The notes below the pieces were generated by a model. That model did no database searches. It saw only the letters and a program-made list of their open reading frames with translations, and was not told the DNA's origin. Of a stretch of 64,000 bases of DNA, positions 10,420 to 28,179 are shown one piece after another. The translations under genes were made by a program, and so were the position numbers. This DNA is from Branchiostoma floridae (Eukaryota > Chordata > Leptocardii > Amphioxiformes > Branchiostomatidae). Each line of letters starts with the position of its first letter. The first letter of the stretch is position 1. The DNA lies in contig NC_049981.1 in the NCBI RefSeq assembly GCF_000003815.2, positions 29,995,051-30,059,050 on the forward strand, read 5' to 3'.

Positions 10420-13400
10420 TTTATTCGGAAAATCAGTGAAGAATCTCTCTCTTGCCCCTCACAGTTCAAGTCTGGATTCCACTCAAGAAAACAGCTCCAA
10501 CCAAACATGGGCTTCCTTTGCATACGTACTTGGTATATATATATATATTGCCAAGGAGGTTGGATGCACCTTCCTTGATATTGCTAGCAAAACCTGAGCT
10601 TCCTAACAACATAATCAAGTAACACAAGCTCACAATAAGGCTTGGAATACATATATCAAGCCCAAATCTATGGCACCGAGCAAAATTAAGATTACAAAAA
10701 CTTTTAGCAGCATATATACTTGTAAACGAACTGTAATCGTAATCATTTATTTGCTATAACATCTAGTAACCAAAATATGCTATATAAACTCTGGGTAAGT
10801 CCCTTTTCACATATTCTATGTCTAAGTCATCAGACATGTACATAGACACAGAAAACATGAGGACGGCATCACCCAAGGTGCTGTGACAGGCACTTGGAAC
10901 CAGCCAAGTTTTCAGCCCTGCACCTATAAATATCTTAACTCTATCTTGAGCTTCTCCACACAAACTTAAACAGTCATTTGTATGAATTCGAGGGGCATCG
11001 TCACTGCTGTGACCAAGTTAACCATCCTCGTAAGAACAAAATGTACTGTTACAACTCGCTTGTGTTTCGTTTTGCTTGAAGTCCCAGCTTCATATCTAAC
11101 AAGCGTTCAACAACTCTGGAATGGCTACTTAACTGTCAATAAGGTAACAGAACAAACATAAACAAAGGTTCGTAAAAAAGGGTCACATAGTGACATAGAG
11201 CCCTCAGAGCTTAGAATTCCACTGAGAACTACCAACATGTGGCAATATTGCAAGTATTTTTGTTGGCAGTGTAGATACCATATTGCCTTGTATTACTTTG
11301 TGAAGTTGTAAGAAGTTTTACCTCAACACTTTAATGTTGACATCTTGTTCGAGCCATCACACAAGTATTTAACACTGTTTTGGCAGTTTGCACTCTTATG
11401 TAATAATAGCTGCCCTGTTTACTTGCCATTTCTCGGACCAGAGCAACAGCAAATATTGCAATCATCAACGCTTAGTTATTATTAGTCACCAGAGACCCTT
11501 CCCCTTTGACGGGTACATCTTGACCAAATCATCGAGTTCTTTCAGCTGCCTCTCAAAACTCCCTTCACAACCTTAACCAAGCATTTCCCGATCAGGCCAA
11601 ATTGGCTGATACCATTCACAGCCTTTTCAATTGTCCAATCACAGTCACTTTTAGCTCCTTGGTCCAATCGCTGCCTTTTGCATTGTCCCATCGCTATCTT
11701 TCAGATTGTCCAATCAGCGTCTTTCCCATGGTGTTACCGTGGATACTCGATGACCTCGCTTCTCTTGTCGCTGAGGCGATACAGCTTCTTCTTGACCAGC
11801 CTGTACCCGGAGCTGAGCGTGACCGTTTTCTGTCCAGAGCAGCCGGAGAACGGGAGCAGCGCCTGGAGCGCATTCAGCCACGCGGCCCGGTCTCTCCTCA
11901 GGGTCAGCGTCAGCTCGAAGGTGTTCACCGTGTCCGGGTCGTAGTTCACCTTCCCGACCTGCTTGGATACGCCACTGGAGTCTTCGTACACGGTGTGGAT
12001 GAGGCAGCCGCGCAGCCCGCAGGGCTCGTTGTCTGACATCCGCAGGACGTCCCTGGCGATCTGTTGATTTGATTTATACAATTGAACACAAATGATAAAT
12101 AGAATGAAAAGAAAACATGCAGGGGGCGTGGGGCACAGAAGCCCATGCGGCTTTTCATGGCTCCCCCTCAGAAACTTGGTATGAATGAAACCTAATATAC
12201 ATAATCTAAATAACGATAAAACAATAATATGCATAATCAAGGCTCAATAATAATAACAAGAAATGAAATTAATTGAAACTACACATAGAAAATCATAACG
12301 CTGCAAGTGAGCATAACTAAACAATCTACAGAATCATTAAAAAAATAAGTCGAAACTAGAATCTATTTAGTTAGCAAATACCAAAGGAAATACAGAATAT
12401 CAAAGCAGGGTATGCAAACAAATCAGCACTATAAGTACAATGTATAATACATAGATTCCAACCTGTTGTGTGAGATTGTCCGGCACCACCAGGTTGCACT
12501 GGAGGTATCTTTGCCGCGCCCTCCGCAGAGCGTCCTGCAGCTTGTTGGAGAGCCGCTCGCACGCGAAGTGATCCATCGCGTCGTCACACGCCCAGTCCAG
12601 TCGCAGGAGGGACAAGTCTGGAAAATATGAAGGGAGAACACAACGTTAACATGTTGGTCAAGACTGATCTGTTGGATTTTCCAATAATGATATTAAAAAC
12701 TTCAATAATGACATTAAATTATCATTATCATGTGAGATATAGTGATATTGAATAAAGTAAGTCCACTCTGGGCTTTCAAGTACATGTTCCTCCACACCTT
12801 CATAAAATTTCACCACGTCTTTCTAAGAAATCTGAACTTCATTTAGGACTGTCTCTTGGGGAGTCATTCCTTCATGAATTTTCACGAAAAATGTCCCTCC
12901 AATCCAAGAAATCTGAACTTCATGTCATGAAATTAATGAAAAAACAACAGATTTAAGAACGAAAATAAACAACATGGACTCCCAAACAATGAGAGGGAAT
13001 ATGGAAAAAATTAAACAGGAGACAGCTTTGAGCTCATTCAAAGCAATATTAGAGAGGCTTTGGAAACCCCCAATCAAAACTTATGCACCTTCCCAACCAG
13101 TTGTTTTTTTGTGTTCTGTGCTTTTGAGCTAGTAGTTTTCAACACTCTCTTAGCAGATGTTGGGCTAAGGCTTATTTTGAATAGGTGGAGAAAAGAAGCC
13201 AGACAAAAATGCATTATAACAGGTCAAAAAACAAGCCGAACTCTAGAACATTTGCTTGTAGAGCTGTTTTCAAGATTTGAAATGCCCATTGTGGTATGGA
13301 ACCAGCTGGGTTCCATTGTCATGTGACCCCCCAAGAGGCTCTCCAGTGGGGGAATGTGGCACCATGGTAACAAGATCTGCTGAGCTAGCAGACAGCAATC

Positions 13401-16400
13401 CTCAACACACACTGGGAGATACCAATAACAATGCATTTTGAGGATGGAAAAGACATTCTTGATTTCTATTGCATACTTCAAATTACAGAGTGAAAATTAA
13501 GGTTTCTTATACATAAATAACAGTGCTTTGTATAGTATATGTCTTGTATTACAATCTAATCGATGATACGAGTTCACAACAAAGCATGATTCTGATAGCT
13601 ACCACCACCCCTTTGTAAAATGGTATGTTCTAATAGGGCAGAAAAAAATAGGACAAGCCCCCAGCAACAGCAGCAGCTATCACTGAGCAGTAGGGATTAG
13701 TAGTCTGTAGGGATGGTAGAGTCTGTACCAATCATCCATCTCCAGGGGTGGTAACTACATAAAGGGTTAATAGTGATGGCAGTAGAATGAATATTGATGG
13801 ATATTTTTGGTCCGTTTACAACGCTGTAGCAGTGCAGGTAAAACAGCAGTTAACTGCAAACATTTTCAATAATAAGATTTTTATTCCCTGTAATTTTTTC
13901 TTTCTTTTGAGTTTGACTTTGCTGCAGCATGATTGTTTATTAATTATTTTACATCATTTGACAACCAAAAACAAGCCAAAGATAAAATATATCTCATTTG
14001 GGTCATCAAATTGTGTCACCTAGGGTCATTGGACTCTACTCGAGTCAACGACCTGACCAAGTCCAATAAAAGACTCGAGCCACATCACCCTAGTATATAG
14101 AGTGCAACTCAAACACACCCCATCAAACAACACGCTATGTTCACTTCATAGTAATCAATCAACACACAAAACCTGCAGAATCAGCTTTGCCTAAAATGTT
14201 TGTTTAAACACTTAAACCACCACGGAAACCTTTCCACTGACCATCTGTCTACCGTGCAAAGTAGACCTGATTGGTGGACAACATAGGCTAAACTAACTTC
14301 AGAGTATTAATTATCAACATACAAAAACTGCAGAATCAGCTTTGCCTAAAACGCTTAAACCACCACTGAAGCCTTTCGCTGACCATCTGTGTAACATGCA
14401 AAGTTGACCTGATTGGTGGACAAAATAGGCTAAACTAACTTCAGAGTAATCAACATTCAAAACCTGCAGAATCAGCTTTGCATAAAATGTTTAAACGCTT
14501 AAACCACCACTGAAGCCTTTCGCTGATCATCTGTCTACCGTACAAAGTAGACCTGATTGGCGGACAATATATTATAGGCTAAACTAACTTCAGAGTAATC
14601 AACATACAAAACCTGCAGAATCAGCTTTGCCTTAAATGTTTGTTTAAATGCTTAAACCACCATTGAAGCCCTTTGCTGACCATTTGTCTACCCTGCAAAG
14701 TTGACCTGATTGGCGGACAAAACAGGCTAAACTAACACACCGACACCTGTCTCAACCTCACGTGGATGTCCCCAGGTAAAAGGTGTTTACCTATCTAATA
14801 TTTGATTGGCTGAGTGACGATCTTGGCGTGTAAAATGCTTGGTTTGTGCAAAAAGACTGACAATTGATTCAATTAAGAGATACCTTAGCAAAAAAAGGTC
14901 TTCTTGTAGGTAAAAGCATGAAGCTTGCATATGTGAATCAAATCTTAACACAATTGGTCAGGTGTGCAAATCATTGATAATCTTATCTAGCCCAGGGCAC
15001 TAGTGTTTATGGGTACTTTATCTCAGATTACATAAAGAACAGTTGAATGAGATTTTCTCCAGTTGAACCCATTGTTCTTTTGCACCTGTGCTGAGTCAGC
15101 AATAGTATGCCCTCTAGGCTAGGTGATAATGATATATACGAGTCACATGACTTTTTACAATGAGAGTCACTGCTGTGACTACAAAAAGTGACCTAAGGTA
15201 ACCTGGATGCTACCAACAGAACTTCACATGCACTGGGCTTCATTCACAACTATGCATTTAGACTCTTTCACTACCTTGCATTTTGCCTTTTTAAATTAGG
15301 AACAAATTACGCTCATACAGACTGTTCAAATCCACCTACAACGAAGAAGAGTACCTTAAAATTCCGAACGAACGTCAAAGATCTATTATCACCAAACTAC
15401 GAATTAGCTGCCACAAACTCCGTGTTGAATCAGGGAGGCACAACCGCACACCTCTGGAGCAAAGAATTTGTCAGTTCTGTAACCTGAACAAGGTCGAAGA
15501 TGAAACCCACTTTTTATTAGATTGTAGTTTATATAGTAACGATAGAAGTATTCTTTTTAGCTATATTATAGGAAAGTTCCCTCGCTTTGAATATTTGTCT
15601 AGTGTTGAAAAATTCATTTTTCTTATGAGTTTTGATCAGACGATATTATACCAACACATCTCTAGCTACATATTTAACATTACTAAGAAACGAGAAGAAG
15701 TCGAACAAATGTATTAGACTAGAGTTAGAATCTATGTTTTAGATTAGTATTAGAAACCATGTCTACTGTATTACTACCCTTTGTATCAATATGCCTGTAC
15801 TTAGCCCGATAGGGCATGAATGTGCAATAAAGGCTATTATTATTAAAATTTCATAACCTACGAATCGCATTATACTTTCTTCAACCGGCAATTACACCAG
15901 CCTATGACCACTTCCTCACCTGTTCCAGGTAACTTCTACCTGGCAGGAAGGACAAAGGTTGCATGTCCCACCTGTGGACACCTGTCAAATACCTGTAAGT
16001 GTAAGTACCCCTAACTTATTATGGCCACTTAGCCAGTCTGGCAGATACTCTGACTCTATACACTCCTACCTGGCTGAAAAGATTCTACTCTACTCTATAA
16101 CTAACAAGTTTCTCATGTTACATACCTTCCATCCTTGGCGACTCATTCATGCAGACAGCAAATACAACCCATATAAAGTAACTGATGCATATTTTGTAAT
16201 GTTGAAATAACCACATGACAATTGTACATGGAACATGTGATTGCGAATGAGTCATGAACCCCATCAAAGCCAGGTGTGTGGTCACAGGTACCTACTGGAA
16301 GTCGGAAGGATGTGGCTACGCCACGCTGCCCTACCCTATATTCATCTAGCCTGGGGTTATAACGGTTATACAGAGTATAGTAGCAGTACACAATGCAGAC

Positions 16401-18427
16401 TCAAGTCTCAAAGAAAATAACCCTTCATGCAGAAAGGGTAAAGCACAATGTAAAATATCCACACCTCAACATGGTATTTACTCTTTAACCTGATTGAATT
16501 TCACATCCGTCAGCCTCTGCGGGGAGGGGCCAGTTACAGCCCAGACAGCAGAGTTTTGTGGTTCACAGACTACTTACTGTTATACTTATAGGTGATTTTT
16601 GCTTGGTCAGACAAAAAAAAAAGGGGACAAAAATAGATATTGCAAACAAATGTCAGGTCAGGGTGACCCCGAGATAGGTTGTTGGACTTTACCTGGTGCA
16701 AAGTACGAAGTTACCTGCGTGCACAGGTATGTATAACTGTTAAGTAGGACATCCTGACACTCTTCTGAAATTTGATACTCTAGACTTACCTCACCTGCAT
16801 GACCAAATAAAGCAGTGGGGAAATCCTCTACTTCCATTAGCTTTTTCCTGCTATCTGTAAGTTTTTTTTTACACAGAGAGGTAGAGCTAACCTTAGCACT
16901 ATTGCAAACTATTTATAGCATCATACAGTTGCCATGTTAGTAACGCACATATAAGATGCCTATTCCATTTACAAGAAAAATGTTAGTAGAGTAGATTGTG
17001 GGCATCAACGGGAAGAAGAAGAAGTAGAGATCTTCGGTTAAGTAGGAGTCTCGCTCCAGTTACTAGTAGTTATTAGTGGGTGGAAGAAAAAAAGGACATA
17101 ACATTGTCCTTTTTCATTATTTAGTAGTGCAGTTTTGCCTTGGCTCACACAATAATATTCAGCCATGTACACCGGGTCACCCCTACTCTTCTTGATAAGT
17201 GGGTTCTTTTACGTGGTTTGATGTCGTTAGGTCCCCCACACACAGTGTAACAAAAATCATTGAATTGTTCTGGTTGTGCGAGTCTAAGGAGGTTAGAAAA
17301 GAACCTCCTTCGTGAGTTCAAACATTTTCACTGGTAGGAAAATGCAAGACCATGGTTTAAAATGGACCTACCCGTGGAACCCATATGCAATGCCCTAGCA
17401 ACAGCACAGGATGATAATTTTCTTTTCTCACTGGGGAGTAGGGCCCAGCAAACCACATGGGACCAAATACATGTACCATGTTGCATCATGCAAAGAAAAT
17501 CACATGGCTGGAACTCATCAAGCTACATGCATGATTTACAAAAGAACAAGACTGATCTACAGAAAAACTAATATAAAAATTCCAACACTGAACCCAAACT
17601 ACAAGTTACAACTATGGAAATATCTTAGTAAATGTTTCCATTACAATTTCCAAACAGGGGGCTGTATCGACAGTGTGAGCATTTTGCACTTTAAAAACCC
17701 ATTAAAAGGGTGTGGATTATTCCTTTGACAGGATTGACATACAAATTACAAAACTGTAAATGTCATAGAAAAACACGATTTATCATGAGTGTTGACAGAA
17801 CTCGGGTGCCAACAGCAGGGATTCAGATTTAAATGCCTCCAACAATGGACATGGCTACCCAGGGGAGCTCAGCACCCAACTAACCCTCACTCCAGGGCGG
17901 CAATATCCCTAAGGTAAGCAAAATTATAGCTTTTGTTTAAATTGTGGTTTACATAAAGAAAATCTCTCATTTTCGTACAAAAACTCTGGTGCTTTCGGTA
18001 GGAATATATAATTCTAAGCAAAAAATGAAGTTTGGATAATTTTAGGTGCAAGCTGCAACATGTTTTCTTCTTTTGCACCAAGTAACTGGAGACCGGACAA
18101 AGAAATTGCGCAACGCCTTCCTTCCGATTCTAAGAAACAGTTCCAGAAAGTGTACCCACCTTCTGCGTTCTCAGTGCTCTTGTATCTGACTTGAGGGTAG
18201 TTTTCTCTCCTGTCGACGTCTTTTCTGCAGTCTCTCTCGAAGACGGAAGAAAGGGGTGGGCTGGTTTTGGGGTCGAAAATGTCTCCCAACTTCGTAAAGA
18301 GTTTCTGCAGCGCGGCGAAGAATCCGTCCCCGCTGTCGGTAACAACTTCTTCCCTGACCGAGACCTGCTCCTCCTGTTCCCGAGACGGTACGTTCGGGCC
18401 CATATTGGCGACGTCGCACTTGCACAT
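10420..18427 (-). CDS. DDIT4: DDIT4/REDD1-like stress-response inhibitor of mTORC1
   Basis: REDD1 is a cytosolic stress-induced protein that restrains mTORC1 through TSC1/2. Three coding exons on the minus strand fit by phase: 18427-18160 (ATG, start MCKCDVANMG), 12617-12463 and 12060-11734 (stop), 750 nt in total, 249 aa against 232 in human REDD1. The C-terminal half carries the family hallmarks PDNLTQQIARDVLRMS, NEPCGLRG and YRLVKKKLY, matching the two conserved surface segments needed for REDD1 function. The N-terminus is divergent and acidic, as in the family. Intron 1 is 5.5 kb and repeat-rich. The span down to 10420 includes the likely 3'UTR, with AATAAA signals (minus strand) at 10751-10746 and 10425-10420. 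Vertebrate DDIT4 and DDIT4L may be co-orthologues. Confidence 0.92.
10552..10577. mobile_element. Ultra-short palindromic insertion, copy 1 (TSD ATATTGC)
   Basis: A 26-bp segment begins CAAGGAGGTT and ends CTTCCTTG, an imperfect hairpin. ATATTGC immediately precedes (10545-10551) and follows (10578-10584) it, a perfect 7-bp direct duplication. It lies in the putative DDIT4-like 3'UTR. Confidence 0.85.
11590..11733 (-). repeat. Degenerate 27-30 bp repeats with ATTGTCCAATC core
   Basis: Just downstream of the DDIT4-like stop, on the plus strand, ATTGTCCAATC, TTGGTCCAATC, ATTGTCCCATC and ATTGTCCAATC recur at irregular 25-35 bp spacing with CTTTTxxATTG between. They would lie in the 3'UTR on the coding strand. 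Confidence 0.55.
12065..12180 (-). mobile_element. LINE-type 3' tail fragment abutting the DDIT4-like exon 3 acceptor
   Basis: On the minus strand this reads GAGGGGGAGCC...GGGCTTCTGTGCCCC...GCATGTTTTCTTTTCATTC and ends in ATAAATCAAATCAACAG, and is homologous to 31690-31830 (plus), which ends in AATAAATCAATA. The last bases are the splice acceptor of exon 3. Confidence 0.6.
14165..14735. repeat. Four-copy tandem satellite, about 135-152 bp per unit
   Basis: Four units start near 14165, 14318, 14453 and 14602 with AAAACCTGCAGAATCAGC, and each continues through CTTAAACCACCA, GACCTGATTGG and GGCTAAACTAAC. Units differ by indels of a TTTGTTTAAA segment. Confidence 0.9.
15295..15848 (+). mobile_element. 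LINE 3' end with C-terminal zinc-knuckle frame, copy 2
   Basis: A continuous frame from 15295 to the TAG at 15715-15717 encodes about 140 residues. It includes RICQFCNLNKVEDETHFLLD, the Cys/His motif at the C-terminus of CR1/L2-like reverse transcriptases. The 3'UTR and ATT tail match the copy at 9255-9548. The reverse-transcriptase core is absent (5' truncation). Confidence 0.85.
17286..17311. repeat. Short hairpin related to the palindromic insertions
   Basis: TAAGGAGGTT is followed by seven bases and then AACCTCCTT. The flanks GCGAGTC and GTGAGTT only roughly match, so a target duplication is not proven. Confidence 0.5.
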
Positions 18428-18554
18428 GAGGACAGTGGATGACGGTATGATGTTATAAGAAAGGAAAGGTTTTGTGTTTCCACCTCTCTCCCGACCGCGG
18501 ACTAGACAGTGGTGACCCACACGTTGCTCACGTCGGCCTTATCAGCTGAGACGG

Positions 18555-18590
18555 TGGGCGGGGCTTAGCAAAGCTGCCCTTATATGGCAT
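18555..18590 (-). promoter_or_regulatory. DDIT4-like proximal promoter: GC box and CArG/TATA-like element
   Basis: On the minus strand CCATATAAGG at 18587-18578 is a perfect CC(A/T)6GG CArG box that also contains a TATAA-like core, with a GGGCGGGGC GC box nearby at 18555-18565. It sits about 150 bp upstream of the ATG. CArG boxes bind SRF (established); a role here is inferred. Confidence 0.5.
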
Positions 18591-18827
18591 GATCAGCTTG
18601 GCATGATTGCACTGTTGTTTTTTGCAATTTTGTCGACGTAGCGTAAGATTAAACCACGCAGATACAATCTCTAGTTAAAACAGAGCAATTTGCCGTTACA
18701 CTAATCTGTTCATGGCAAGAGATTAGTTTTATTTTTTCATTTATCGTAAAAACATGTTGTAGGAATCGGAGGAGACGAATTCTCTACTCGACTTCTTCTG
18801 TCTGCCTTCTTGGAAATTTCCAGCGCT

Positions 18828-18890
18828 CCGACCAATCAGATCGCTCTATTTGGGGGTGTGCGCCGATATGTAAATGTATGCAAATATCCC
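18828..18890. promoter_or_regulatory. CCAAT box and octamer upstream of the DDIT4-like gene
   Basis: ACCAATCAG at 18831-18839 and ATGCAAAT at 18878-18885 (POU octamer) lie 40 bp apart, about 280 bp upstream of the predicted core promoter. They are motif matches only. Confidence 0.35.
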
Positions 18891-18899
18891 GACGTCTCG

Positions 18900-19650: not shown

Positions 19651-19658
19651 ATTTATCT

Positions 19659-19683
19659 CAAGGGCCTTTTCAAAAGCTCCTTG
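19659..19683. mobile_element. Ultra-short palindromic insertion, copy 2 (TSD ATTTATC(T))
   Basis: A 25-bp hairpin begins CAAGGGCCTTTTC and ends AAAAGCTCCTTG. ATTTATCT precedes (19651-19658) and follows (19684-19691) it. The arms carry GCTTTT rather than the GGTTAT of most copies. Confidence 0.85.
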
Positions 19684-19864
19684 ATTTATCTGGATGCTAT
19701 CACTGTATGTTACGTAGTATAAGTCTAAAAGAAAATTAAATATAAAGAACCCTACCTACCGATCCTCATTTATTGAAACATTGAAACAGGAAACACGACA
19801 TTTTTCCCTGGGCCTAACATGAAAGGGGTAAAGGCAGTGCAAAACAATATAGTCAGTGTCTACT

Positions 19865-19901
19865 CAAGGAGCTTTTAAAAGGAGCTTTTAAAAGCTCCTT
19901 G
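19865..19901. mobile_element. Ultra-short palindromic insertion, copy 3 (TSD GTCTACT)
   Basis: A 37-bp element with arms CAAGGAGCTTTTAAAA and TTTTAAAAGCTCCTTG around GGAGC. GTCTACT occurs directly before (19858-19864) and after (19902-19908) it. Confidence 0.9.
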
Positions 19902-20329
19902 GTCTACTCTATGCTTACTCTAGATTATCAAGTTGGTTTGACTTCATTTCCGAAGACAGTGGAATACGAAAGATCCCACCTTTTCTATCATGAATCTGTA
20001 TCATGATATCAGCACACTTCAATATTGCATACTAGTACATGTATGTAGGGCTGGCATATAAGTAACGTTATCGTGTGACGCTGGGACACAGGATACATAT
20101 TTGCCAGAAAGACCGCGGCAGTGTCAAATCTCGAACTGAGTACAAACTGACACTGAAATATGGTCCGGCTCAATGTACTGCAGTAACATACCGCACACTG
20201 CGCATATAGTCTCTACCAGACTCCCGCCTGACCGAAAATAGGGGAATTTGGCCAAGTTTAATGTATTAAATAGGAATACTGAAAGTGGGACTAGGATTTA
20301 TTTGGCCTAGACTAGTTGTAGTGAATTGT

Positions 20330-20470
20330 TCGGCCGCTGAGCTGGATATTCTGCAAAATTTTGCCAAAAGCCTGACTGAAAACCCATAGTAACTTATTTG
20401 TCCCTATTTCATTTGGCCAAATTCTTCTCTTTTTTCCTCCTCCAGCTGACACGTCTGCCTGTTAAATCTC
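20330..20470 (-). mobile_element. MITE relative with TCTCCAAGCAG-type end
   Basis: The reverse complement (GCAGACGTGTCAGCTGGAGG ... AGAATTTGGCCAAATG ... GACAAATAAGTTACTATGGG) matches 24437-24560 on the plus strand, indicating a dispersed element. It abuts the MITE starting at 20463. Confidence 0.55.
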
Positions 20471-20636
20471 CAAGCAGATCCTACGGTAGCATAAGATAGT
20501 ATCAAAAGCTGCCAGAGGAGTGAAGCCAGCATATGAGTGTGTTTGGCTACATGACAAATGTACACCTCTTGGCTGACTACACTCCTTGGTCAGTTTAGTA
20601 CTATCTTATGCCATCGTATGATCTGTTTGGAGATTA
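20463..20636. mobile_element. MITE with TCTCCAAGCAGATC terminal inverted repeats
   Basis: Begins AATCTCCAAGCAGATCCTAC and ends GATCTGTTTGGAGATTA, with subterminal ATAAGATAGTA blocks. CACGTCTGCC and AACGTCTGCC occur just outside both ends, a probable target duplication with a few extra bases. Confidence 0.85.
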
Positions 20637-20639
20637 TAT

Positions 20640-21530
20640 AACGTCTGCCCAAGGAGGTTATTGCCTGAAGACTACTGCGCATACAAGATCCTTCTAGAAG
20701 CGCCTGGAAACAGGTGCTATTACCGGGGCCGCTCACATGACCGCTCATGTGACCCAGAGGGCGTTGACTTGCCTCGGGCCAATATTTCGTGTTGTATGCT
20801 TGCTCGAGTAGACAATAAACTACACGATGGAACGTGACGACCAGGTAATAAAGTAATACAGCTGACAGAGCATTACTACGGTGATAATAAGAAATGACAA
20901 ATTTATAATGTTGCGTGTAGATATGAATGTCTAATTTTGTGAGGCGTTACACACCAATCATAGATATGTCATCAGCCAAGTAAAGCCCTGTATTATCATA
21001 TAACCCAGGGGCTTGATAAAAACGTCTTTTTTAACCTGAATCAAAAATTTTATAGCATATAAATTATACTGCTCTTGTCCAAGGCGGCTTTATGCCTTCC
21101 CTGAATATACATAGGCGCTGCAGAAAAGCGTGGTGTTATGAGAAGATTAAAGATTATAAGAAGTTTATTTGCAACTTCGTACCCGAGGGCTAATTGCAAG
21201 TACATGGTATAAACATAGTGACAATGGACAGTAATAAAGAATATTCTACTCTAGTAATACAGTAATACTATGTACTAGTGTTGGCTATTTCTAACCAGGT
21301 GCAAACGTACTATGAATAATGAATGTATAGCGTCACAGCTAGTTTTAAAACTTGAATAGAGCAAGGAGGTTTCATTTTCTAACCTCATTGAATACTAGTA
21401 TTGCAAGGAGGCTCAATTCAATCGCGTTTTGCATATTTTGTCGCCTTGTTGGGGGGATACTTTTGATTAGAACACGGCCATCTTTCCTCAGCCAATCAGG
21501 AGCGAGTATTTCTTGTGACTAAATCCACAT
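20640..21530. other. Intergenic, fragments of short hairpins only
   Basis: Contains CAAGGAGGTTATTGCCTG at 20647, and at 21362-21390 a hairpin with arms CAAGGAGGTT and AACCTCATTG, both related to the palindromic insertions but without clear target duplications. No gene is seen. Confidence 0.45.
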
Positions 21531-21536
21531 AGTATG

Positions 21537-21683
21537 GTGTCCCTAGGGGTAGGGGTGTACTAAGTAACGAATAAATTGACTAAGTTGGAGACGCCCACCA
21601 TTGAACTGAATGGTCTCCCTAGGGGTAGGGGTGTACCAACCAACGAATAAATTGACTAAGTTGGAGACGCCCACCTTTCTCAT
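21537..21683. repeat. Two-copy tandem duplication, about 75 bp
   Basis: ATGGTGTCCCTAGGGGTAGG and ATGGTCTCCCTAGGGGTAGG start two units that both continue through AACGAATAAATTGACTAAG and TTGGAGACGCCCACC. Confidence 0.9.
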
Positions 21684-21867
21684 GCAAATAGAAGCAATTA
21701 AAGAATTAACAAAAAGGGAAACAGCAAATCAACCTATGTTACTGAACATCTTTATTCATAACATAAACAAAGGAAATTCTAACGATCATGAAAGAAAGTC
21801 AGAAAACGAACAAGACAATAATAAAGAGTTTCTTGTAACAAGAAAATACATACAAACAGCGTTACAT

Positions 21868-21903
21868 CAAACTTTCAAAGACATGAAAAATATAACCTCC
21901 TTG
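21868..21903. mobile_element. Ultra-short palindromic insertion, copy 4 (TSD GTTACAT)
   Basis: A 36-bp segment begins CAAACTTTCAAAG and ends ATAACCTCCTTG. Perfect GTTACAT repeats lie on both sides (21861-21867, 21904-21910). Read on the minus strand the element starts CAAGGAGGTTAT and the TSD is ATGTAAC, so it sits in the reverse orientation with one arm degraded. Confidence 0.8.
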
Positions 21904-21924
21904 GTTACATCAAGCTAGGGAACA

Positions 21925-22620
21925 GGCTCCAAGATAGTAAAGAAAAACTAGTAGAGATGCTACATAAAAACATGCGAGTTAAATTGATCAAAACGATCAA
22001 TACTTCCATAAACGAGAAACAAACTAAAAATGCAGGAAGATAATGCATGATGTGGTCTACCAGGAACGGGTCAAACTGGGAACAGGACAGCTCGTCAGAA
22101 CGGTTGCTCCAGCAGGGCGAATGAAATGGGGGAGGAGGCAGCGACATCGGCCGGTCTGTCTGGCAAGAACTGGTCAGGATCAAAACTACAGAACAGTTCG
22201 GCAGAGATGCCACCATGCCGCAGCAAAACGTTTTACACCAGCTCGAGCTGGAACTCAGACATGTCGGGTTGTGTACGGAACTCGCCTGAACAATTACTGT
22301 GAAAACGGCTGAACATACTCGAGAAAATGGGCCTCCAAGACATGCCACGTCCTGCTCATTTGAGGTCAGGTTGGGAACTGGGATTGATCTGACATACACC
22401 CACAGAACAATGGCATTGTGGTGCAAAAAAGTGTTGTAAAACCAGACATGAATTTCACACAAGCCTCATGAGGAATGGTGTGAGGCGCCATCACCATGGT
22501 CATGAATGGGAAATAGGAGAAGAATATAGCCTGTCTGTTCGCTTGCTAGGAAACAAACTGCATGTTTCTATTGACTAAAAAAGTGTATTTTGCTTCGGAT
22601 AGATGGCCATGTTCTAAGTC
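21925..22620. other. Intergenic, no gene recognised
   Basis: Open frames on both strands here overlap one another, lack recognisable domains and have no supporting splice or family signal. Confidence 0.4.
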
Positions 22621-22624
22621 AGAT

Positions 22625-22724
22625 NNNNNNNNNNNNNNNNNNNNNNNNNNNNNNNNNNNNNNNNNNNNNNNNNNNNNNNNNNNNNNNNNNNNNNNNNNNN
22701 NNNNNNNNNNNNNNNNNNNNNNNN
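22625..22724. other. Assembly gap (100 N)
   Basis: Exactly 100 N, a placeholder-sized gap in a repeat-rich intergenic stretch. Confidence 0.99.
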
Positions 22725-22767
22725 TGTGAATCTTCCATTGTCCTGTGAAACTCTGTGTGATTGCCAA

Positions 22768-23636
22768 CCCAGACCTACCGATCGTCAAGCTTGCCGACAA
22801 ACAAAGGACATTTGTCAAACTGGCGTCCTTTTTTTACCGACGTTAGGTGTGTGTATTCAAGGAGGTTTCAAACTCCCTTGGTGTATTATAAAAATCTGTT
22901 TGTGTCTACAGTTATGATGGAAATGAGATGCCGACTGTCTTTGTCTTTAGGATATGCTTTTTTTGTCTTTTTTTTTCAAAGAGGTTTGAAAGATTAGCAT
23001 TTGATGCTATGGACATGTACGAAAGACCACCGGTAGACAAAACGGCATCTCGCTCAGAGTAAAAGTTGATAATGATAATGATAAATGATAACCCGGACCT
23101 ACCGATCGTCAAAGCTTGCCGACAAACAAAAGACATTTGTCAAACTGGCGTGGCGTTTTTACCGACGTTAGGTGTGTGTATTACAAAAACCTGTTACTGC
23201 CTACAGTTATAATGAATGAAGACCTTTATTGCACATTTTTGCCCCACTGGGCTAAGTACAGGTCACACGGTAAGAATCAATCATACACATCTATATATGC
23301 AGATGTGCGTCTAATCTATTCTATGACATTCGACTTCCTCTCGCTTCTTGGTAATTGCATAAATGTAGCTAGCTGTATGGTTGGTTAGAGTTGGTTTATC
23401 AAAAGCTGTCAGGAATATAAATTTCTCTTTACTGTTCAAGTGTCTGAAGTGGGGATATTTACTTAACACATAGTCAAATAAAATGTTCCTATCGCTATCA
23501 TGGAAATGAGATGCCGACTGTCTCTGTCTTTTAGGACATGCTTTTTTTGTCTTTTTTCAAAGAGGCTTGAAAGGTTAGCATTTGATGCTATGGGCATGTA
23601 CGAAAGATCACCAGTAGACAAAACGACGTCTCAGAG
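22768..23636 (+). repeat. Duplicated A-B repeat blocks
   Basis: Block A (22768-22912) recurs at 23093-23212 and shares ACCTACCGATCGTCAA, GACATTTGTCAAACTGGCGT and ACCGACGTTAGGTGTGTGTA. Block B (22913-23065) recurs at 23497-23636 and shares GGAAATGAGATGCCGACTGT and TTAGCATTTGATGCTATGG. About 280 bp of unrelated sequence, including a LINE-tail-like TTTATTGCACATTTTTGCCC, splits the second A-B pair. Confidence 0.85.
22858..22880. mobile_element. Ultra-short palindromic insertion, copy 5 (TSD GTGTATT)
   Basis: A 23-bp hairpin begins CAAGGAGGTTTC and ends AAACTCCCTTG, flanked by GTGTATT at 22851-22857 and 22881-22887. The paralogous block at 23171-23190 reads GTGTGTATT then ACAAAAA without the element and with one GTGTATT only: an unfilled site. 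Confidence 0.93.
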
Positions 23637-23660
23637 TTGGAAATAAATGTGTGTTCCCCA

Positions 23661-23793
23661 TAATCTCCAAGCAGATCTTGCGGTGGCACAAGAGAAGTTT
23701 CATACGCTTCGCGGTGGCTTGCCGGCTAAACTCCTTCCCCAGTTTATGATACTACTAGTATCTTATGCCACCACAAGATCTGCCTGGAGATTA
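23661..23793. mobile_element. MITE with TAATCTCCAAGCAGATC termini and extended inverted flanks
   Basis: The ends are TAATCTCCAAGCAGATCTTG and AAGATCTGCCTGGAGATTA. Complementarity extends outwards into TGTTCCCCA (left) and TGGGGGAACA (right), unlike the other copies. Confidence 0.85.
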
Positions 23794-24068
23794 TGGGGGA
23801 ACACATATTGTTTTATGTGGTAGGGGACCAAGTTAGCAAATTTTGAAAGTGCCGAAATACCAGCTAGTGGGCGATAGGCGGCGCTTCGAATCGAAATAAA
23901 TTTTGTAAGCCGTTCCAAGGACATTTGATATATGTTGTTAGGTGTCATTGGTCGTTCATTGCAATTCGTATGCAAAGAAGTGCTACTGCCCGCCCCCGAC
24001 AAGTGTATAGTTTCGGGTTGTTTTTGTGGCTGATTTGGCTCAATTTCTGCGTTTCAGTTCAGTTTAGC

Positions 24069-24099
24069 CAAGGACGTTATATCTGATATAACGTCCTTG
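24069..24099. mobile_element. Ultra-short palindromic insertion, copy 6 (TSD GTTTAGC)
   Basis: A 31-bp perfect palindrome with arms CAAGGACGTTATATC and GATATAACGTCCTTG. GTTTAGC flanks it at 24062-24068 and 24100-24106. Confidence 0.93.
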
Positions 24100-24436
24100 G
24101 TTTAGCCTTCATGCTCAGTTAGGGTACTAGTAACCAGGGCACCCAGTCAGTGCGTAGCCCGGCAGACCTCTGCTTTGGGCTGTAATTCACAAAGCCGCCA
24201 TAGGAGGCGCACAAACAAGTGCGCCAAATCCCCAAATGAATGAGTACGAAAAAGGCTGACCTGACTAAAATCGCGCCCCTAGCGGTCGGCCTTCCTCCTG
24301 CCAGCGAGAGATAATGTATTAAACAGTATACGAAAAGCCACACTGTGACGAAAGGTCAATAGCACACAGTGGCGTTCCTCTCCGCTCACCCGCATTGGGC
24401 TGTGCTCACCACATGGTCTGTTTTGTGTGCTTGCGT

Positions 24437-24560
24437 AGTCTCCAAGCAGTCGTGTCAGCTGGATGAAAAAAGAAGAATTTGGCCAAATAGACGACAAATA
24501 AGTTGCCATGGGATTTCAGTCAGTCTTTTGCAGTCTATCCAGCTAAGATACAGCTGTCCG
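24437..24560 (+). mobile_element. MITE relative, plus-strand copy
   Basis: Starts AGTCTCCAAGCAGTCGTGTC and continues AGCTGGATGAAAAAAG, AGAATTTGGCCAAATAG and GACAAATAAGTTGCCATGGG, homologous to 20330-20470 in reverse and more distantly to 32434-32530. Confidence 0.55.
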
Positions 24561-24659
24561 CCCATCAAATTTTGGCCGTTTTTGATGATCCCTCGTGATG
24601 ATGGTTTTTTTTTTTTTTTCATTTCACGGAGTGCATTTATCGGATGACACAAAAAGTAC

Positions 24660-24900
24660 TTTTAGAATCACATACTACTACTACTAGACTCGAAATCGTG
24701 TTTTCACACATTGTTCAATCCACATATTGAAATTCTGTATTAAAATCAATTTACTACAATAGCCTCTAAGCACAAGTATAATGTGGCTGTGTTCTTTGGT
24801 GTCATTTTGTACGGCTTTCTAATGACCCTGGGGAGGGGATATCGGGAATAGACAAGGTAAGCTAGAGAATGTTAAGATTTCCTCCCAACATCTGCTTGAA
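24660..24900. other. Intergenic, nothing recognised
   Basis: AT-rich sequence without identifiable features. Confidence 0.35.
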
Positions 24901-24902
24901 GA

Positions 24903-25588
24903 TTGACGTCACCACCGATGACGTGTCTATCGTTATCATTGACCTTTAATACGTTCAAGCGGAAAGCGTACAACTGACTGGGGATCATATTCATATATAT
25001 CGACACCAATTTTTTTTTTTTTACTTCTGATTACATTTATTAAAAGTAGCCATAGCGTGTAACAATAAATATGACAAATAAAGATATTATCCTTTGACCT
25101 ATGCTAGTGTATAGTGTTGTTTAGTCACCTTTAAAACCTTTTATTCAACCTTGCCTGGAGGTTGGAATGACGTCATGACCGATGACGTGTCTGTTCAGGT
25201 CGTCATCATTGACCTAACGTTCAGGTGAAAAGGGCACATACGAGATTGGGGAGGGTATGTTTATATAGAGAGAGATTATTGACGCAAAGACAGAAAAAGG
25301 GTCAACGTACACAAATTTGATATTTGAAAATCTCCTTTGAAAATCCAAATTGTCTTCAGCTTGACTTTGGCTTAGCTTTGGAATCCAAATTGTCTTCAGT
25401 CTGAAGTGTCTTACAACCTTTCCTATTGGACATCTGGAATGACGTCATGACCGATGACGTGTCTGTTCAGGTCGTCATCATTGACCTAACGTTCAGGTGA
25501 AAAGGGCACACACGAGGTTGTGGAGGGTATGTTTATATAGAGAGAGATTATTGACGCAAAGACAGAAAAAGGGTCAACGTACACAAAT
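24903..25588. repeat. Three spaced copies of a CRE-containing segment
   Basis: Copies at 24903-24960 (diverged), 25166-25318 and 25437-25588 each carry TGACGTCA (or TGACGTCACC), then GATGACGTGTCT and ATCATTGACCT. The last two are nearly identical over about 150 bp and contain GTTTATATAGAGAGAGATTA. Spacing is about 265-270 bp. No gene is attached to them in the window. Confidence 0.85.
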
Positions 25589-25723
25589 GCATACGTATAA
25601 ACATACGTCTATCGATACATTTTTAGCCATTGCGTCAATCAAAGACATTACACTTACATGTAAGTCATGTAATGCTGGTCGTGATCCCAAAAAAGAACTT
25701 TGCAAACAAACAAAAAACAGGAC

Positions 25724-26009
25724 AGCTAGTTCACCTTTATCCGCGGGGCAACCTATATCCGTTGCTTTTTTTTATAAAACGGTACCTAGGGGTATCGAGT
25801 CAACGGACTGTGGCTTCAAACTGTAATACACTTGTATTTTGAAAATATTGTAATTTTTTCAAACACATGTATTGGAATTTCAAATCTACGTCCGTCGACT
25901 TTAGATTTCTAGATACATGTACCTTGTTATTTTTTCAAAACAACGGATATAGGTTACCACGCGGATATAATGACAATGATCTTTTTTTTATATAGGTGAA
26001 CTAGCGTTA
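25724..26009. mobile_element. MITE with CTAGTTCACCTTTATCC terminal inverted repeats, full copy
   Basis: Left end GCTAGTTCACCTTTATCC and right end TATATAGGTGAACTAGCG are inverted, with subterminal CCTATATCCGTTG and CAACGGATATAGG. The internal part is AT-rich and non-coding. Confidence 0.8.
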
Positions 26010-26125
26010 CAGATATGACTTGTGTGTCAGAGACTGTCAGTGTCATTCGCAAACACAAAATAGCCGATGCTGTGAATTAGGACTTTGCCATGGCCAATAT
26101 ATTGACTGATGGAGGCCATATGACG
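26010..26125 (+). mobile_element. Diverged LINE 3' fragment
   Basis: TGTCAGAGACTGTCA ... TAGCCGATGCTGTGAATTAGG ... TTGCCATGGCCAATAT ... GGAGGCCATAT tracks the LINE 3' end at 5790-5925, with deletions. Confidence 0.6.
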
Positions 26126-26158
26126 TTAATAATAGGGTTAATGCCGGGGTAACTTATA

Positions 26159-26258
26159 NNNNNNNNNNNNNNNNNNNNNNNNNNNNNNNNNNNNNNNNNN
26201 NNNNNNNNNNNNNNNNNNNNNNNNNNNNNNNNNNNNNNNNNNNNNNNNNNNNNNNNNN
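26159..26258. other. Assembly gap (100 N)
   Basis: Exactly 100 N; it removes the left half of a MITE copy whose right half (GATATCCCTAAATACCC to CAAGCGTTA) follows at 26260-26403. Confidence 0.99.
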
Positions 26259-26259
26259 A

Positions 26260-26403
26260 AACAGGATATTTAGTCAAATTGCTATACTTAAAAAATATTG
26301 CAGTTTGAAATCACAGTTTGACGATTTGATATCCCTAAATACCCTGTTTTTAAATTCAACGGATATAGGTTACTCCGTTGATGAAGGTAAACAAGCGTTA
26401 TAT
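26260..26403. mobile_element. Right half of a CTAGTTCACC-type MITE
   Basis: Reads TTTGATATCCCTAAATACCC, then CAACGGATATAGGTTACTCC, and ends GGTAAACAAGCGTTA, matching the reverse complement of family left halves. Confidence 0.7.
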
Positions 26404-26486
26404 CACCACCTTCGCCGTATATCATGATCAGCTAGCGTTCGCTGAGGCGGGCCGACATTGTTTCCACACTTTTATATGCATGTAAC

Positions 26487-26508
26487 CAAGGAGGTTATAA
26501 CCTCTTTG
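26487..26508. mobile_element. Ultra-short palindromic insertion, copy 7 (TSD ATGTAAC)
   Basis: A 22-bp hairpin with arms CAAGGAGGTTA and TAACCTCTTTG. ATGTAAC flanks it directly at 26480-26486 and 26509-26515. Confidence 0.93.
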
Positions 26509-26921
26509 ATGTAACAATATCCGCGACAAGTAGAAATATTAATTTCTGACCTGTGCTATTTGATGTGGTCACGTCAGTAAAATATAATACCAGTGAATCG
26601 TTCTGAAAATCTTTTATTACAACAGTACAAAGAACATTTTGCAAAATGTACAGCTACAAATACCCAGCTAAGTATATCCGCAAGTTATATATAGTGCAAG
26701 CACAAGCTAGCCACAGAGTGCTCTAATATAGAGCTAAGAGATATTGAGTACTTCAGTCCACAAACCACATACTTTTGTACAGTGCAGGTACATGTGATTG
26801 AATAAACATAGTCCTAGTTTTGGGGTAAGAAAGCATGAAAAGGACTACAGACAATAGTTCGTAGGTATTCTCGTCAAGACGAGGGTAACCATGGCGACCG
26901 TGAGGAAGTGACATTTGTTGA

Positions 26922-27085
26922 GTTGAAGCACTGTTGACTGGTAACTAGGATGTGACGATAGAAATAAAACAACGCTAGACACAAACTTCAACCAAGGCGT
27001 ATAACCTCCTTTGTCGACGTTTGTCTCTAGGGTTGTCTTATTTTTTACCGACACATCCTAGTTACTTGTCAACAGTATTTTCAAC
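26922..27085. mobile_element. Fold-back element with arms of about 33 bp and long internal palindrome
   Basis: The left arm GTTGAAGCACTGTTGACTGG then TAACTAGGATGTG pairs with the right arm CACATCCTAGTTACTTGTCA then ACAG...TTCAAC. Inside, AAATAAAACAAC/CTAGACACAAAC pairs with GTTTGTCTCTAG/GTTGTCTTATTTT. A small CAAGGCG...CCTCCTTTG hairpin lies at the centre (26993-27013). Confidence 0.75.
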
Positions 27086-27099
27086 AGGGTTGAAGCAAG

Positions 27100-27700
27100 T
27101 AGTCATACATACACTTTATCAAGTGCTGACAGCTTATTTCCCCATAGCGGCTACGTTATGGAATTTGTTTATCACCCCAACAAATTAGAGGCTCACCTAT
27201 CTTACCCCCCGTAACTCAGGGTGGGGTTGTAGACTTTATAACAGTCTTTGTTCTCAGTTCGTTTGTCCATACAAACATATATACAAACTACATTTGGTAC
27301 GTTACCCCCCCATCCCACAACTCAGGGTGGGGTTGTATACCTTAAAACATTCTGCACACGAGTTCCTATACCAACACACCTCCGAATGCGCAGTAGCATC
27401 GCAATGACGTGCAGTTTAAAACAAGGTATTAACGTTACATGTACATCGTGACTTTTAACAATGCGAAATACGTCAAACTATTTTCCACGCCTTTGATACT
27501 ATTGTACTACGGCCATTGTGCCATGTAACAAAAGCTTGGCATCTTGGACTTAGCAACCCACAACGCGTCACATCATTAATTTCAAATTATACATAACGCT
27601 ATATACATGCTTCGGTTACCATGGCAATGCCTGTATACCTGTACATGGCTCCTTGCCAGCGTTAACACAGTCACAAGCATGCTTCTTACGTAAACAACTT
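27100..27700. other. Intergenic, nothing firm
   Basis: Two short related segments (ACCCCCCGTAACTCAGGGTG near 27205 and CCCCATCCCACAACTCAGGG near 27306, both followed by GGGGTTGTA) suggest a local duplication. No gene is recognised. Confidence 0.4.
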
Positions 27701-27707
27701 CCTCTGA

Positions 27708-27851
27708 TTTGTATGCCTCTATTTATAGTTTATTGCCTTATTTTTACCCAGTTATTGCCTATTGTAAAAAGGGTGTGGGTCATAAATTGATAAAACAATA
27801 GCACAATAAACTAAAAATAGCGACAATAAACTAAAAATAGAGGCATACAAA
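27708..27851. mobile_element. Fold-back MITE with terminal inverted repeats of about 28 bp
   Basis: Left end TTTGTATGCCTCTATTTATA then GTTTATTG; right end CAATAAACTAAAAATAG then AGGCATACAAA. The right arm itself is partly duplicated (CAATAAACTAAAAATAGCGA). No target duplication is clear. Confidence 0.8.
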
Positions 27852-28134
27852 CTACACAAGCCTGACTTAACTTTTGCTAGAACCAGCTAGCATTGAATGA
27901 ACTTACGGCTTACTAGTATTACGAACAAAAGTATGTACAGCGTTACTCAACTAGGAATTTAGTTGTGTGTAACGATATCGATCTATATACAAATGACACC
28001 CCCCACATCTCTCCTCAAACAAAGTCTAGACAAAATTGGCCACTTATACGCGACAGTGATTGTGATTGTGCAAGTCATGATGGTCTTAAGGTATGTGAAG
28101 CATTTTTTTTAGCCGAACGGGCAGTCTGTCTAGG

Positions 28135-28157
28135 CAAGTGAGGTTATAACCTCCTTG
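28135..28157. mobile_element. Ultra-short palindromic insertion, copy 8 (TSD GTCTAGG)
   Basis: A 23-bp hairpin with arms CAAGTGAGGTTA and TAACCTCCTTG. GTCTAGG flanks it at 28128-28134 and 28158-28164. Confidence 0.93.
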
Positions 28158-28179
28158 GTCTAGGACACAGTATTGTAAA

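What the first reader, a model, noticed from the sequence alone, without database searches (positions are those of the whole stretch)
10545..28164. A family of 22-37 bp palindromic insertions with 7-bp target duplications
Seen: eight hairpins at 10552, 19659, 19865, 21868, 22858, 24069, 26487 and 28135 have ends CAAGG(A/G).../...CCTTG and are each flanked by a perfect direct repeat: ATATTGC, ATTTATC(T), GTCTACT, GTTACAT, GTGTATT, GTTTAGC, ATGTAAC and GTCTAGG. Oriented by the better-conserved arm, all fit RTNT and seven fit RTNTA. Inference: these are the smallest possible fold-back transposons, two terminal inverted repeats with almost nothing between, mobilised by an unknown transposase that makes 7-bp duplications. 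Established knowledge: 7 bp is uncommon (hAT gives 8, Tc1 gives 2, Harbinger gives 3; Dada gives 6-7). I know of no described family this short.
Basis: partly seen in the sequence, partly recalled or inferred. Interest (0 to 1): 0.85.

Follow-up and report, generated by a model that had tools for sequence, protein, structure and literature searches.

The report
Palindromic scars of departed P-type transposons
The tiny palindromes are most likely not the world's smallest jumping genes but scars left where a larger jumping gene, related to the fruit-fly P element, was cut out and the break sealed, so the genome keeps a natural record of where the enzyme cuts and how the breaks were repaired.

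Summary
All eight hairpins lie at the stated places; seven have perfect adjacent 7-bp repeats, one (19659) has 8 bp. Genome-wide, strict patterns find 1,403, 185 and 377 such palindromes, reversed controls 0; 59 of 78 fetched sites have perfect 7-bp repeats.
The interpretation changes. I found parents: two transposons, 8,684 and 8,442 bp, with such ends and perfect 7-bp duplications, encoding a transposase with P-element (TNP-like) RNase H domains, and shorter derivatives of about 1.2 kb (14 of 15 checked end pairs have 7-bp duplications). Of 75 palindromes compared with known parental ends, 50 are two truncated prefixes joined head to head, and in 73 no arm exceeds 21 nt although the ends continue to 31-38 nt. 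Published P-element excision junctions look the same. Empty-site paralogues support insertion.
Best reading: excision footprints of a P-type transposon, not mobile micro-elements. New aspects: a RAG1-N-like zinc domain where known P proteins have THAP; inferred 17-21 nt tails; in one family 377 footprints against at most 42 intact elements.

The parts
10545..10584 (.). palindrome 10552-10577 (26 bp) with 7-bp duplication ATATTGC on both sides
19651..19691 (.). palindrome 19659-19683 (25 bp) with 8-bp duplication ATTTATCT; right arm of CAAGGAGCTTTT type, matches 12 nt of the 8,442-bp element's end
19858..19908 (.). palindrome 19865-19901 (37 bp) with duplication GTCTACT; both arms match 13 nt of the 8,442-bp element's end, with an internal copy of the end (looks like a templated filler)
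21861..21910 (.). imperfect palindrome 21868-21903 (36 bp) with duplication GTTACAT
22851..22887 (.). palindrome 22858-22880 (23 bp) with duplication GTGTATT
24062..24106 (.). palindrome 24069-24099 (31 bp) with duplication GTTTAGC; CAAGGACGTT variant end
26480..26515 (.). palindrome 26487-26508 (22 bp) with duplication ATGTAAC
28128..28164 (.). palindrome 28135-28157 (23 bp) with duplication GTCTAGG
17278..17318 (.). additional decayed palindrome 17285-17311 (27 bp), 7-bp flanks with 2 mismatches
21355..21397. additional decayed palindrome 21362-21390 (29 bp); flanks no longer match (3 mismatches in 7, by eye)
39392..39437 (.). weak additional candidate 39399-39430 (32 bp), ends with 3 and 2 mismatches, 7-bp flanks with 1 mismatch

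Best explanation
The palindromes are excision footprints (donor-site scars) of cut-and-paste DNA transposons with P-superfamily-type catalytic domains. A transposon of about 1.2-8.7 kb inserts at a palindromic target (TNN-GTNWNAC-NNA) and duplicates 7 bp (shown: two long elements and shorter ones with these ends and duplications; the motif was measured at footprints). When it leaves, the transposase cuts one strand at the element's tip and the other about 17-21 nt inside each end, so that both flanks keep single-stranded tails of the terminal repeat (inferred from arm lengths and from P-element biochemistry). The tails are trimmed, filled in and joined, so the site keeps duplication + piece of left end + piece of right end (reversed) + duplication, a 20-46 bp palindrome (joins shown in sequence, repair pathway inferred). 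Longer arms (24, 28 and 54 nt) probably come from partial gap-repair synthesis before joining (inferred). At least one scar was copied further inside another repeat.
For: Parents: a search for the P-transposase domain PF21787 hit three places. At two, complete elements were found: C11:17071456-17080139, 8,684 bp, 38-bp identical terminal repeats, duplication AAGTCAT; C19:10308832-10317273, 8,442 bp, 31-bp identical terminal repeats, duplication CTCTAAC (coordinates). Transposase domains: PF21787 8.6e-22 and 6.5e-21, PF21789 3.3e-7 and 3e-8 in downstream frames. Shorter elements with the same ends: 4 of 5 end pairs checked have 7-bp duplications (1,217-1,220 bp; the fifth pair looks like an inverted duplication); of 74 ends of the second type 32 pairs form, 27 of them 1,178-1,190 bp apart, 10 of 10 checked with 7-bp duplications. 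Footprint anatomy: complete list of 25 GAAAG-type palindromes (arms of at least 15 nt required): 20 are exactly two prefixes of the 38-nt terminal repeat in either of two variants, 18 have unequal arms, longest arm 15-21 nt in 23. Of the 377 CAAGGAGCTTTT-type ones the 50 listed were compared: 30 are two prefixes with 0-2 nt overlap, against a mean of 3.5 for decoy terminal repeats (3 of 2,000 decoys reach 30); longest arm 19 or less in 49, 21 in one. L083, 66 bp with duplication GTCTGTT, has 54 nt matching the tip of the 8,684-bp element (5 mismatches, 1 gap), then 2 nt and 10 nt of another end. 20 of 20 CAAGGAGCTTTT-type sites fetched have perfect 7-bp duplications. Published P-element junctions have the same plan (PMC2895639 section 7 with Table 1). 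Empty sites: of eight fetched paralogues of a repeat, three lack the palindrome and one copy of the duplication, four have both like the query, one has a different interior at the same site.
Against: No parent was found for several arm families (AAAGAATCAC/AAAGAAAGAG, ATATTCAG, AAAAATCAC); one exact 22-nt probe hit only a footprint. At the third PF21787 hit (L088, 7 kb) no matching pair of ends was seen. 20 of 50 and 5 of 25 palindromes are not simple two-prefix joins. 19 of 78 fetched sites lack a perfect 7-bp duplication. Some palindromes recur at several loci (8 of 50 identical), which mobile micro-elements would also predict; Drosophila junctions recur too (14 isolates of one short-microhomology junction). 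The same Drosophila table also has 20 isolates (14+4+2) of long-microhomology joins that lose nearly all of the ends and would leave no palindrome. Microhomology is suggestive at most: overlaps of 0/1/2 nt in 14/11/5 of 30 joins with one terminal repeat, expected 0.70/0.15/0.15, and 7/15/8 with three variants, for which no expectation was run. In the GAAAG family the footprints (25, long arms only) do not outnumber the long ends (32). The window's own eight palindromes match the known terminal repeats compared over 13 nt at most, so their assignment rests on the class as a whole. No excision was observed; the cut position is inferred.
Confidence: 0.93

Rival explanations
1. The palindromes are themselves mobile micro-elements (22-37 bp fold-back transposons) moved by the transposase of the long elements.
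For: Perfect 7-bp duplications at most fetched sites and some identical palindromes at several loci.
Against: Sequences are diverse: 33 distinct of 38, 20 of 20 and 13 of 20. Arms are unequal prefixes of longer terminal repeats in 18 of 25. Drosophila P needs at least 138 bp and 216 bp of its ends, and Anopheles P-MITEs carry less than 100 bp of P sequence at each end (PMC1562414 passages); the palindromes compared nearly all lack sequence beyond about 21 nt. Two ends 20-40 bp apart could hardly be paired by a transposase (general knowledge).
Confidence: 0.04
2. They are internal-deletion remnants made by replication slippage or palindrome instability of elements with inverted repeats, not by transposase cutting.
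For: Deletion between terminal repeats would also leave palindromes inside the duplications; rarer cases have arms of 24 and 28 nt and one of 54 nt.
Against: Arms stop at 21 nt or less in 23 of 25 and at 19 or less in 49 of 50 although the terminal repeats continue to 31-38 nt; slippage has no reason to stop there. A similar cap is seen in two families.
Confidence: 0.03

Closest known systems
Drosophila P element excision junctions (P{wa}, Chan, Yu and McVey 2010, PMC2895639 Table 1)
   Same: Target duplication + up to 17 nt of each terminal repeat + optional filler + target duplication; unequal arms; recurrent junctions (section 7 read).
   Different: 8-bp instead of 7-bp duplication; 17-nt tails instead of an inferred 17-21; recovered in a laboratory assay instead of at natural sites; part of the Drosophila joins lose nearly all of the ends.
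Galileo and 1360 (P superfamily, Drosophila)
   Same: 7-bp, in Galileo occasionally 8-bp, duplications at a palindromic GT...AC target (PMC2775673, PMC4168063, PMC3276498 passages); related catalytic superfamily.
   Different: The target motif here is TNN-GTNWNAC-NNA; Galileo's transposase has a THAP domain (title of PMC3688188 in the listing), none found here.
Zebrafish Pdre2 / THAP9
   Same: P-type transposase, terminal repeats, target duplication (PMC10983969 passages).
   Different: 13-bp terminal repeats of another sequence, 8-bp duplication; no RAG1-like N terminus mentioned in the passages seen.
P-MITEs of Anopheles gambiae
   Same: Non-autonomous elements sharing the ends of P transposons, comparable to the 1.2-kb elements here (PMC1562414 passages).
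   Different: 8-bp duplications; the palindromes here are far shorter.
RAG1 N-terminal / Chapa-domain transposons (Chapaev, TransibSU, N-RAG-TP)
   Same: The N terminus of the transposase matches PF12560 RAG1_imp_bd; N-RAG-TP and the Chapa domain are described in passages of PMC8355894 and section 6 of PMC4411706. That PF12560 and the Chapa domain are the same thing is my inference.
   Different: Here it sits in one open frame with a P-type RNase H domain; [quoted passage not shown]

Membership tests
P superfamily of DNA transposons (parent elements) | TNP-like RNase H domain, N-terminal and C-terminal parts | tested here: met
   PF21787 8.6e-22 / 6.5e-21 and PF21789 3.3e-7 / 3e-8, all above curated cut-offs
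P superfamily of DNA transposons (parent elements) | Terminal inverted repeats and 7- or 8-bp target duplication | tested here: met
   Two long elements, 4 of 5 end pairs of the 1.22-kb class (the fifth is not an element by its flanks) and 10 of 10 of the 1.19-kb class with perfect 7-bp duplications
P superfamily of DNA transposons (parent elements) | Palindromic target motif with GT...AC half-sites | tested here: met
   TNN-GTNWNAC-NNA over 50 and 59 footprint sites; measured at footprints, not at the long elements
P superfamily of DNA transposons (parent elements) | THAP zinc finger at the N terminus of the transposase | tested here: not met
   No THAP hit in the frames scanned and no C2CH signature (recalled pattern) in six frames of either element; a THAP domain split by introns is not excluded. 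I therefore call the elements P-type by catalytic domains, not P elements in the strict sense
P superfamily of DNA transposons (parent elements) | GTP-binding insertion domain | tested here: inconclusive
   Not reported by the Pfam scans of the frames given; exons between the two RNase H parts were not assembled
P-type excision footprints (the palindromes) | Target duplication kept on both sides, with prefixes of both terminal repeats joined head to head | tested here: met
   Duplication perfect at 7 bp in 59 of 78; 50 of 75 compared are pure two-prefix joins, the other 25 have fillers or unknown variants
P-type excision footprints (the palindromes) | Arms end near a fixed cut position inside the terminal repeat | tested here: met
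   Longest arm 21 or less in 23 of 25, 19 or less in 49 of 50
P-type excision footprints (the palindromes) | Same site seen as occupied, footprint and empty | tested here: inconclusive
   Footprint and empty states shown among paralogues of one repeat; a long element at the same site was not seen
MITE / fold-back transposon (the palindromes) | Multi-copy mobile unit with a shared full-length sequence and the ends needed for transposition | tested here: not met
   33 of 38, 20 of 20 and 13 of 20 sequences distinct; in 73 of 75 compared no arm exceeds 21 nt
hAT superfamily | 8-bp duplication; excision that leaves flank-derived, not terminal-repeat, sequence (recalled) | tested here: not met
   Duplication is 7 bp in 59 of 78 and 8 bp in 1; scars consist of terminal-repeat pieces
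Dada superfamily | Dada transposase, 6-7 bp duplication | not tested
   No Dada protein search was run; parents with P-type domains account for the ends

The most novel reading that the evidence does not exclude
These are the scars of an undescribed lineage with a P-type catalytic core whose transposase uses a RAG1-N (Chapa-like) zinc domain in place of THAP, cuts its donor up to about 21 nt inside the end, and carries a convergent accessory gene (C2H2 finger plus a conserved region of about 355 aa). Its scars form a genome-scale natural archive of germline double-strand-break repair, and the lineage is a further possible source or recipient of the RAG1 N terminus.
Probability: 0.55. Interest if true: 0.75.

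Novelty: new variant of a known kind. Interest (0 to 1): 0.62.

Why it matters
Short palindromes with target duplications could be read as exotic micro-transposons or missed altogether; here they can be read as records of transposon departure. Because terminal repeats, duplications and junctions are all visible, hundreds of natural repair junctions in a chordate genome can be analysed without an experiment (377 of one strict type; 1,403 and 185 of others): cut position, trimming, filler and microhomology become countable. The parents also join a P-type transposase core to a RAG1-N-like zinc domain, a combination that a 2015 paper did not know (PMC4411706 section 6), which bears on where the N terminus of the V(D)J recombinase came from.

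Tried and rejected
Rejected: chance hairpins (controls 0); hAT origin (scar anatomy and duplication length); mobile micro-elements (diverse, unequal, truncated arms). Tried without result: a probe for the parent of the AAAGAATCAC arm family hit only a footprint; the single ends in the sampled loci did not pair into long elements; the third P-domain hit (L088) showed no matching ends in 7 kb; a 3.2-kb repeat first suspected to be the parent (L025/L026) turned out to be another repeat that carries footprints; no match of one transposase frame to solved structures at E 0.01; the end sequence is in 184 papers, of which the ten listed looked unrelated by title, and the listings for amphioxus, MITE, 7-bp or footprint terms showed no description of this. 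This is weak evidence of absence, because Repbase and most subscription journals are not held. A first check for shared flanks read one strand only; repeated on both strands it shows that two of the 78 sites, L069 and L070, are copies of one larger repeat, all others unrelated at this level. Not done: haplotype or sister-species comparison (no other assembly held), structure prediction, a Dada protein search.
Full report
What was checked. The eight hairpins were read back at their coordinates. Seven have perfect adjacent 7-bp repeats, 19659 has 8 bp. It has 513,431,437 bases in 431 contigs and the window is C3:29995051-30059050, a size that fits B. floridae as I recall it.

Abundance. The pattern CAAGGAGGTT-N0..20-AACCTCCTTG has 1,403 exact sites, control 0; with gaps of 21-51 only 185, some of them compound; CAAGGAGCTTTT-N0..25-AAAAGCTCCTTG has 377, control 0. 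In 20 stretches of 10 kb taken at round positions, 3 structures passed a looser test with a perfect 7-bp duplication, which extrapolates to about 7,700 in the genome (95% interval about 1,600 to 22,500).

Target duplications. I fetched 78 sites with 40-bp flanks: 38 that follow in order in the listing (sites 5 to 42 of the 50 listed; two with the larger compound boundaries), 20 chosen by eye from the 50 listed, and the first 20 of the 50 listed. Perfect 7-bp duplications: 26 of 38, 13 of 20, 20 of 20; one further site has 8 bp; 70 of 78 have at most one mismatch in 7. The first four sites (L001-L004) were outside this count: one perfect at 7 bp, one at 8 bp within a short repeat, two with one mismatch. 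Control pairings match in 3 of 6,006. Two of the 78 (L069, L070) are copies of one larger repeat; no other pair shares a 15-mer in the flanks on either strand. The reconstructed target is a palindrome T-N-N-[GTNWNAC]-N-N-A (50 sites; 59 sites), so the one-sided RTNTA of the finding was a small-sample effect. Palindromic targets that reach beyond the duplication were reported for all TIR and LTR families in a Drosophila survey, where 1360, of the P superfamily, has a modal duplication of 7 bp with GTTNAAC (PMC3276498 passages).

Parents. The P-transposase domain PF21787 has three hits in this genome. Around two of them I found complete elements: 8,684 bp at C11:17071456-17080139 with 38-bp identical terminal repeats beginning CAAGGAGGTT and duplication AAGTCAT; 8,442 bp at C19:10308832-10317273 with 31-bp identical repeats beginning CAAGGAGCTTTT and duplication CTCTAAC. 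At the third, a partial hit, no matching ends were seen in 7 kb. In both elements a long frame has PF21787 and a downstream frame has PF21789. The 767-aa frame of the second element also contains a RAG1_imp_bd match (7.1e-8); in the first element that match (7.2e-10) lies in a separate, overlapping frame. The two transposases are 47% identical over 577 positions. A second, convergent frame is 54% identical between them with no Pfam match; short C2H2 frames on the same strand are matches below or just below the cut-off. Whether these frames form one gene is inference.

Non-autonomous relatives. The 38-nt repeat occurs 32 times with up to 3 mismatches. Five end pairs were checked: four, 1,217-1,220 bp apart, have perfect 7-bp duplications, and the one read whole aligns at both ends to the 8,684-bp element; the fifth, 9,709 bp apart, has reverse-complementary flanks and identical same-side ends, so it looks like an inverted duplication and not an element. 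The 31-nt repeat occurs 74 times with up to 3 mismatches, forming 32 pairs, 27 of them 1,178-1,190 bp apart, with 10 ends unpaired; 10 of 10 checked pairs have perfect 7-bp duplications. Thus for this family 377 strict palindromes stand against at most 42 long elements; for the GAAAG family the 25 strict palindromes do not exceed the 32 long ends.

Footprint anatomy. For the GAAAG family I have the complete strict list of 25 palindromes (the pattern requires arms of at least 15 nt): 20 equal prefix + reversed prefix of the 38-nt repeat (two variants seen), 18 have unequal arms, and the longest arm is 15-21 nt in 23, then 24 and 28. For the other family 50 of 377 were listed and compared with three variants of the 31-nt repeat seen: 30 are two prefixes with 0-2 nt overlap, the rest have fillers or unknown variants; decoys with shuffled interiors average 3.5, and 3 of 2,000 reach 30; the longest arm is 19 or less in 49 and 21 in one. 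L083 holds 54 nt matching the tip of the 8,684-bp element (5 mismatches, 1 gap), 2 nt, and 10 nt of another end, inside duplication GTCTGTT. The arms thus stop well inside a repeat that continues, as expected if a tail of limited length is left at the donor site.

Comparison with experiment. In Drosophila, P transposase leaves 17-nt 3' tails (PMC7776569 and PMC2895639 passages). Repair junctions in flies lacking Rad51 include many with the 8-bp duplication, 16-17 nt of each terminal repeat, and none, a few or about ten filler bases; others (20 isolates of long-microhomology joins) lose nearly all of the ends (PMC2895639 section 7 with Table 1). The palindromes here follow the first plan with a 7-bp duplication; scars of the second kind would not have been seen by my patterns.

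Empty sites. A 211-bp piece of a repeated sequence that carries CAAGGACGATAACGTCCTTG between two copies of GAACTTGC was searched in the genome (41 matches); eight of these places were fetched. Three lack the palindrome and one copy of the duplication, four have them as in the query, one has a different 25-bp interior at the same place. This scar has an 8-bp duplication, as three Galileo copies do (PMC4168063 passages).

What is shown and what is inferred. Shown: the parents, their ends, the duplications, the target motif, the prefix-join structure, the arm cap, the empty sites. Inferred: that transposase cutting about 17-21 nt inside produced the tails, that fill-in and end joining sealed them, and that longer arms reflect partial gap repair. 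The eight palindromes of the window match the known terminal repeats compared only over 13 nt on both arms (19865), 12 nt on one arm (19659), and 11 nt or less elsewhere, so they are assigned as members of the same class.

Membership and novelty. The elements meet the catalytic-domain, terminal-repeat, duplication and target criteria of the P superfamily, but no THAP domain was found, although a paper on Anopheles P elements states that all known P proteins contain one (PMC1562414 passage). I therefore describe them as P-type by catalytic core. Excision scars of P elements are known, so the kind is known; natural accumulation on this scale, and the RAG1-N-like domain on a P-type core, I did not see in the listings and passages of my ten paper searches.

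Noticed in passing
L086:2392-4692 (+); L087:5851-6609 (-) and 4200-6233 (-): RAG1_imp_bd (PF12560)-like zinc domain at the N terminus of a transposase with P-type RNase H domains; in L086 both lie in one 767-aa frame without stops. No THAP found.
   Followed up: partly
L086:7377-8462 (-); L087:143-1195 (+): A second, convergent frame of about 355 aa, 54% identical between two elements whose transposases are 47% identical, without Pfam match; short C2H2-like frames (MARPGDDDF...) on the same strand near the element end.
   Followed up: partly
L025:176-3402 and L026:184-3406: A 3.2-kb repeat, 99.5% identical between two copies; a 211-bp piece of it has 41 matches in the genome. It carries several scars of this kind and has a hairpin near one end (Helitron-like by recollection).
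   Followed up: partly
G000 C3:4867539-4877247 (L118, L119): Two identical same-side transposon ends 9.7 kb apart with reverse-complementary flanks (GTCCTAC/GTAGGAC), as if a locus had been duplicated in inverted orientation.
   Followed up: no
L082, L053, L002, L004, L040, L029: Scars with two different arm types (AAAGAATCAC and AAAGAAAGAG) suggest a further parent with slightly different left and right ends; one exact probe did not find it.
   Followed up: partly
L069 and L070: A 67-bp structure with the same ends found at two places with one base difference; the flanks are also shared (reverse orientation), so it is part of a larger repeat.
   Followed up: partly
L128 compared with L025, L125-L127, L130: At one repeated site a 25-bp interior instead of 20 bp, either a second independent excision or later change of one scar.
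   Followed up: no
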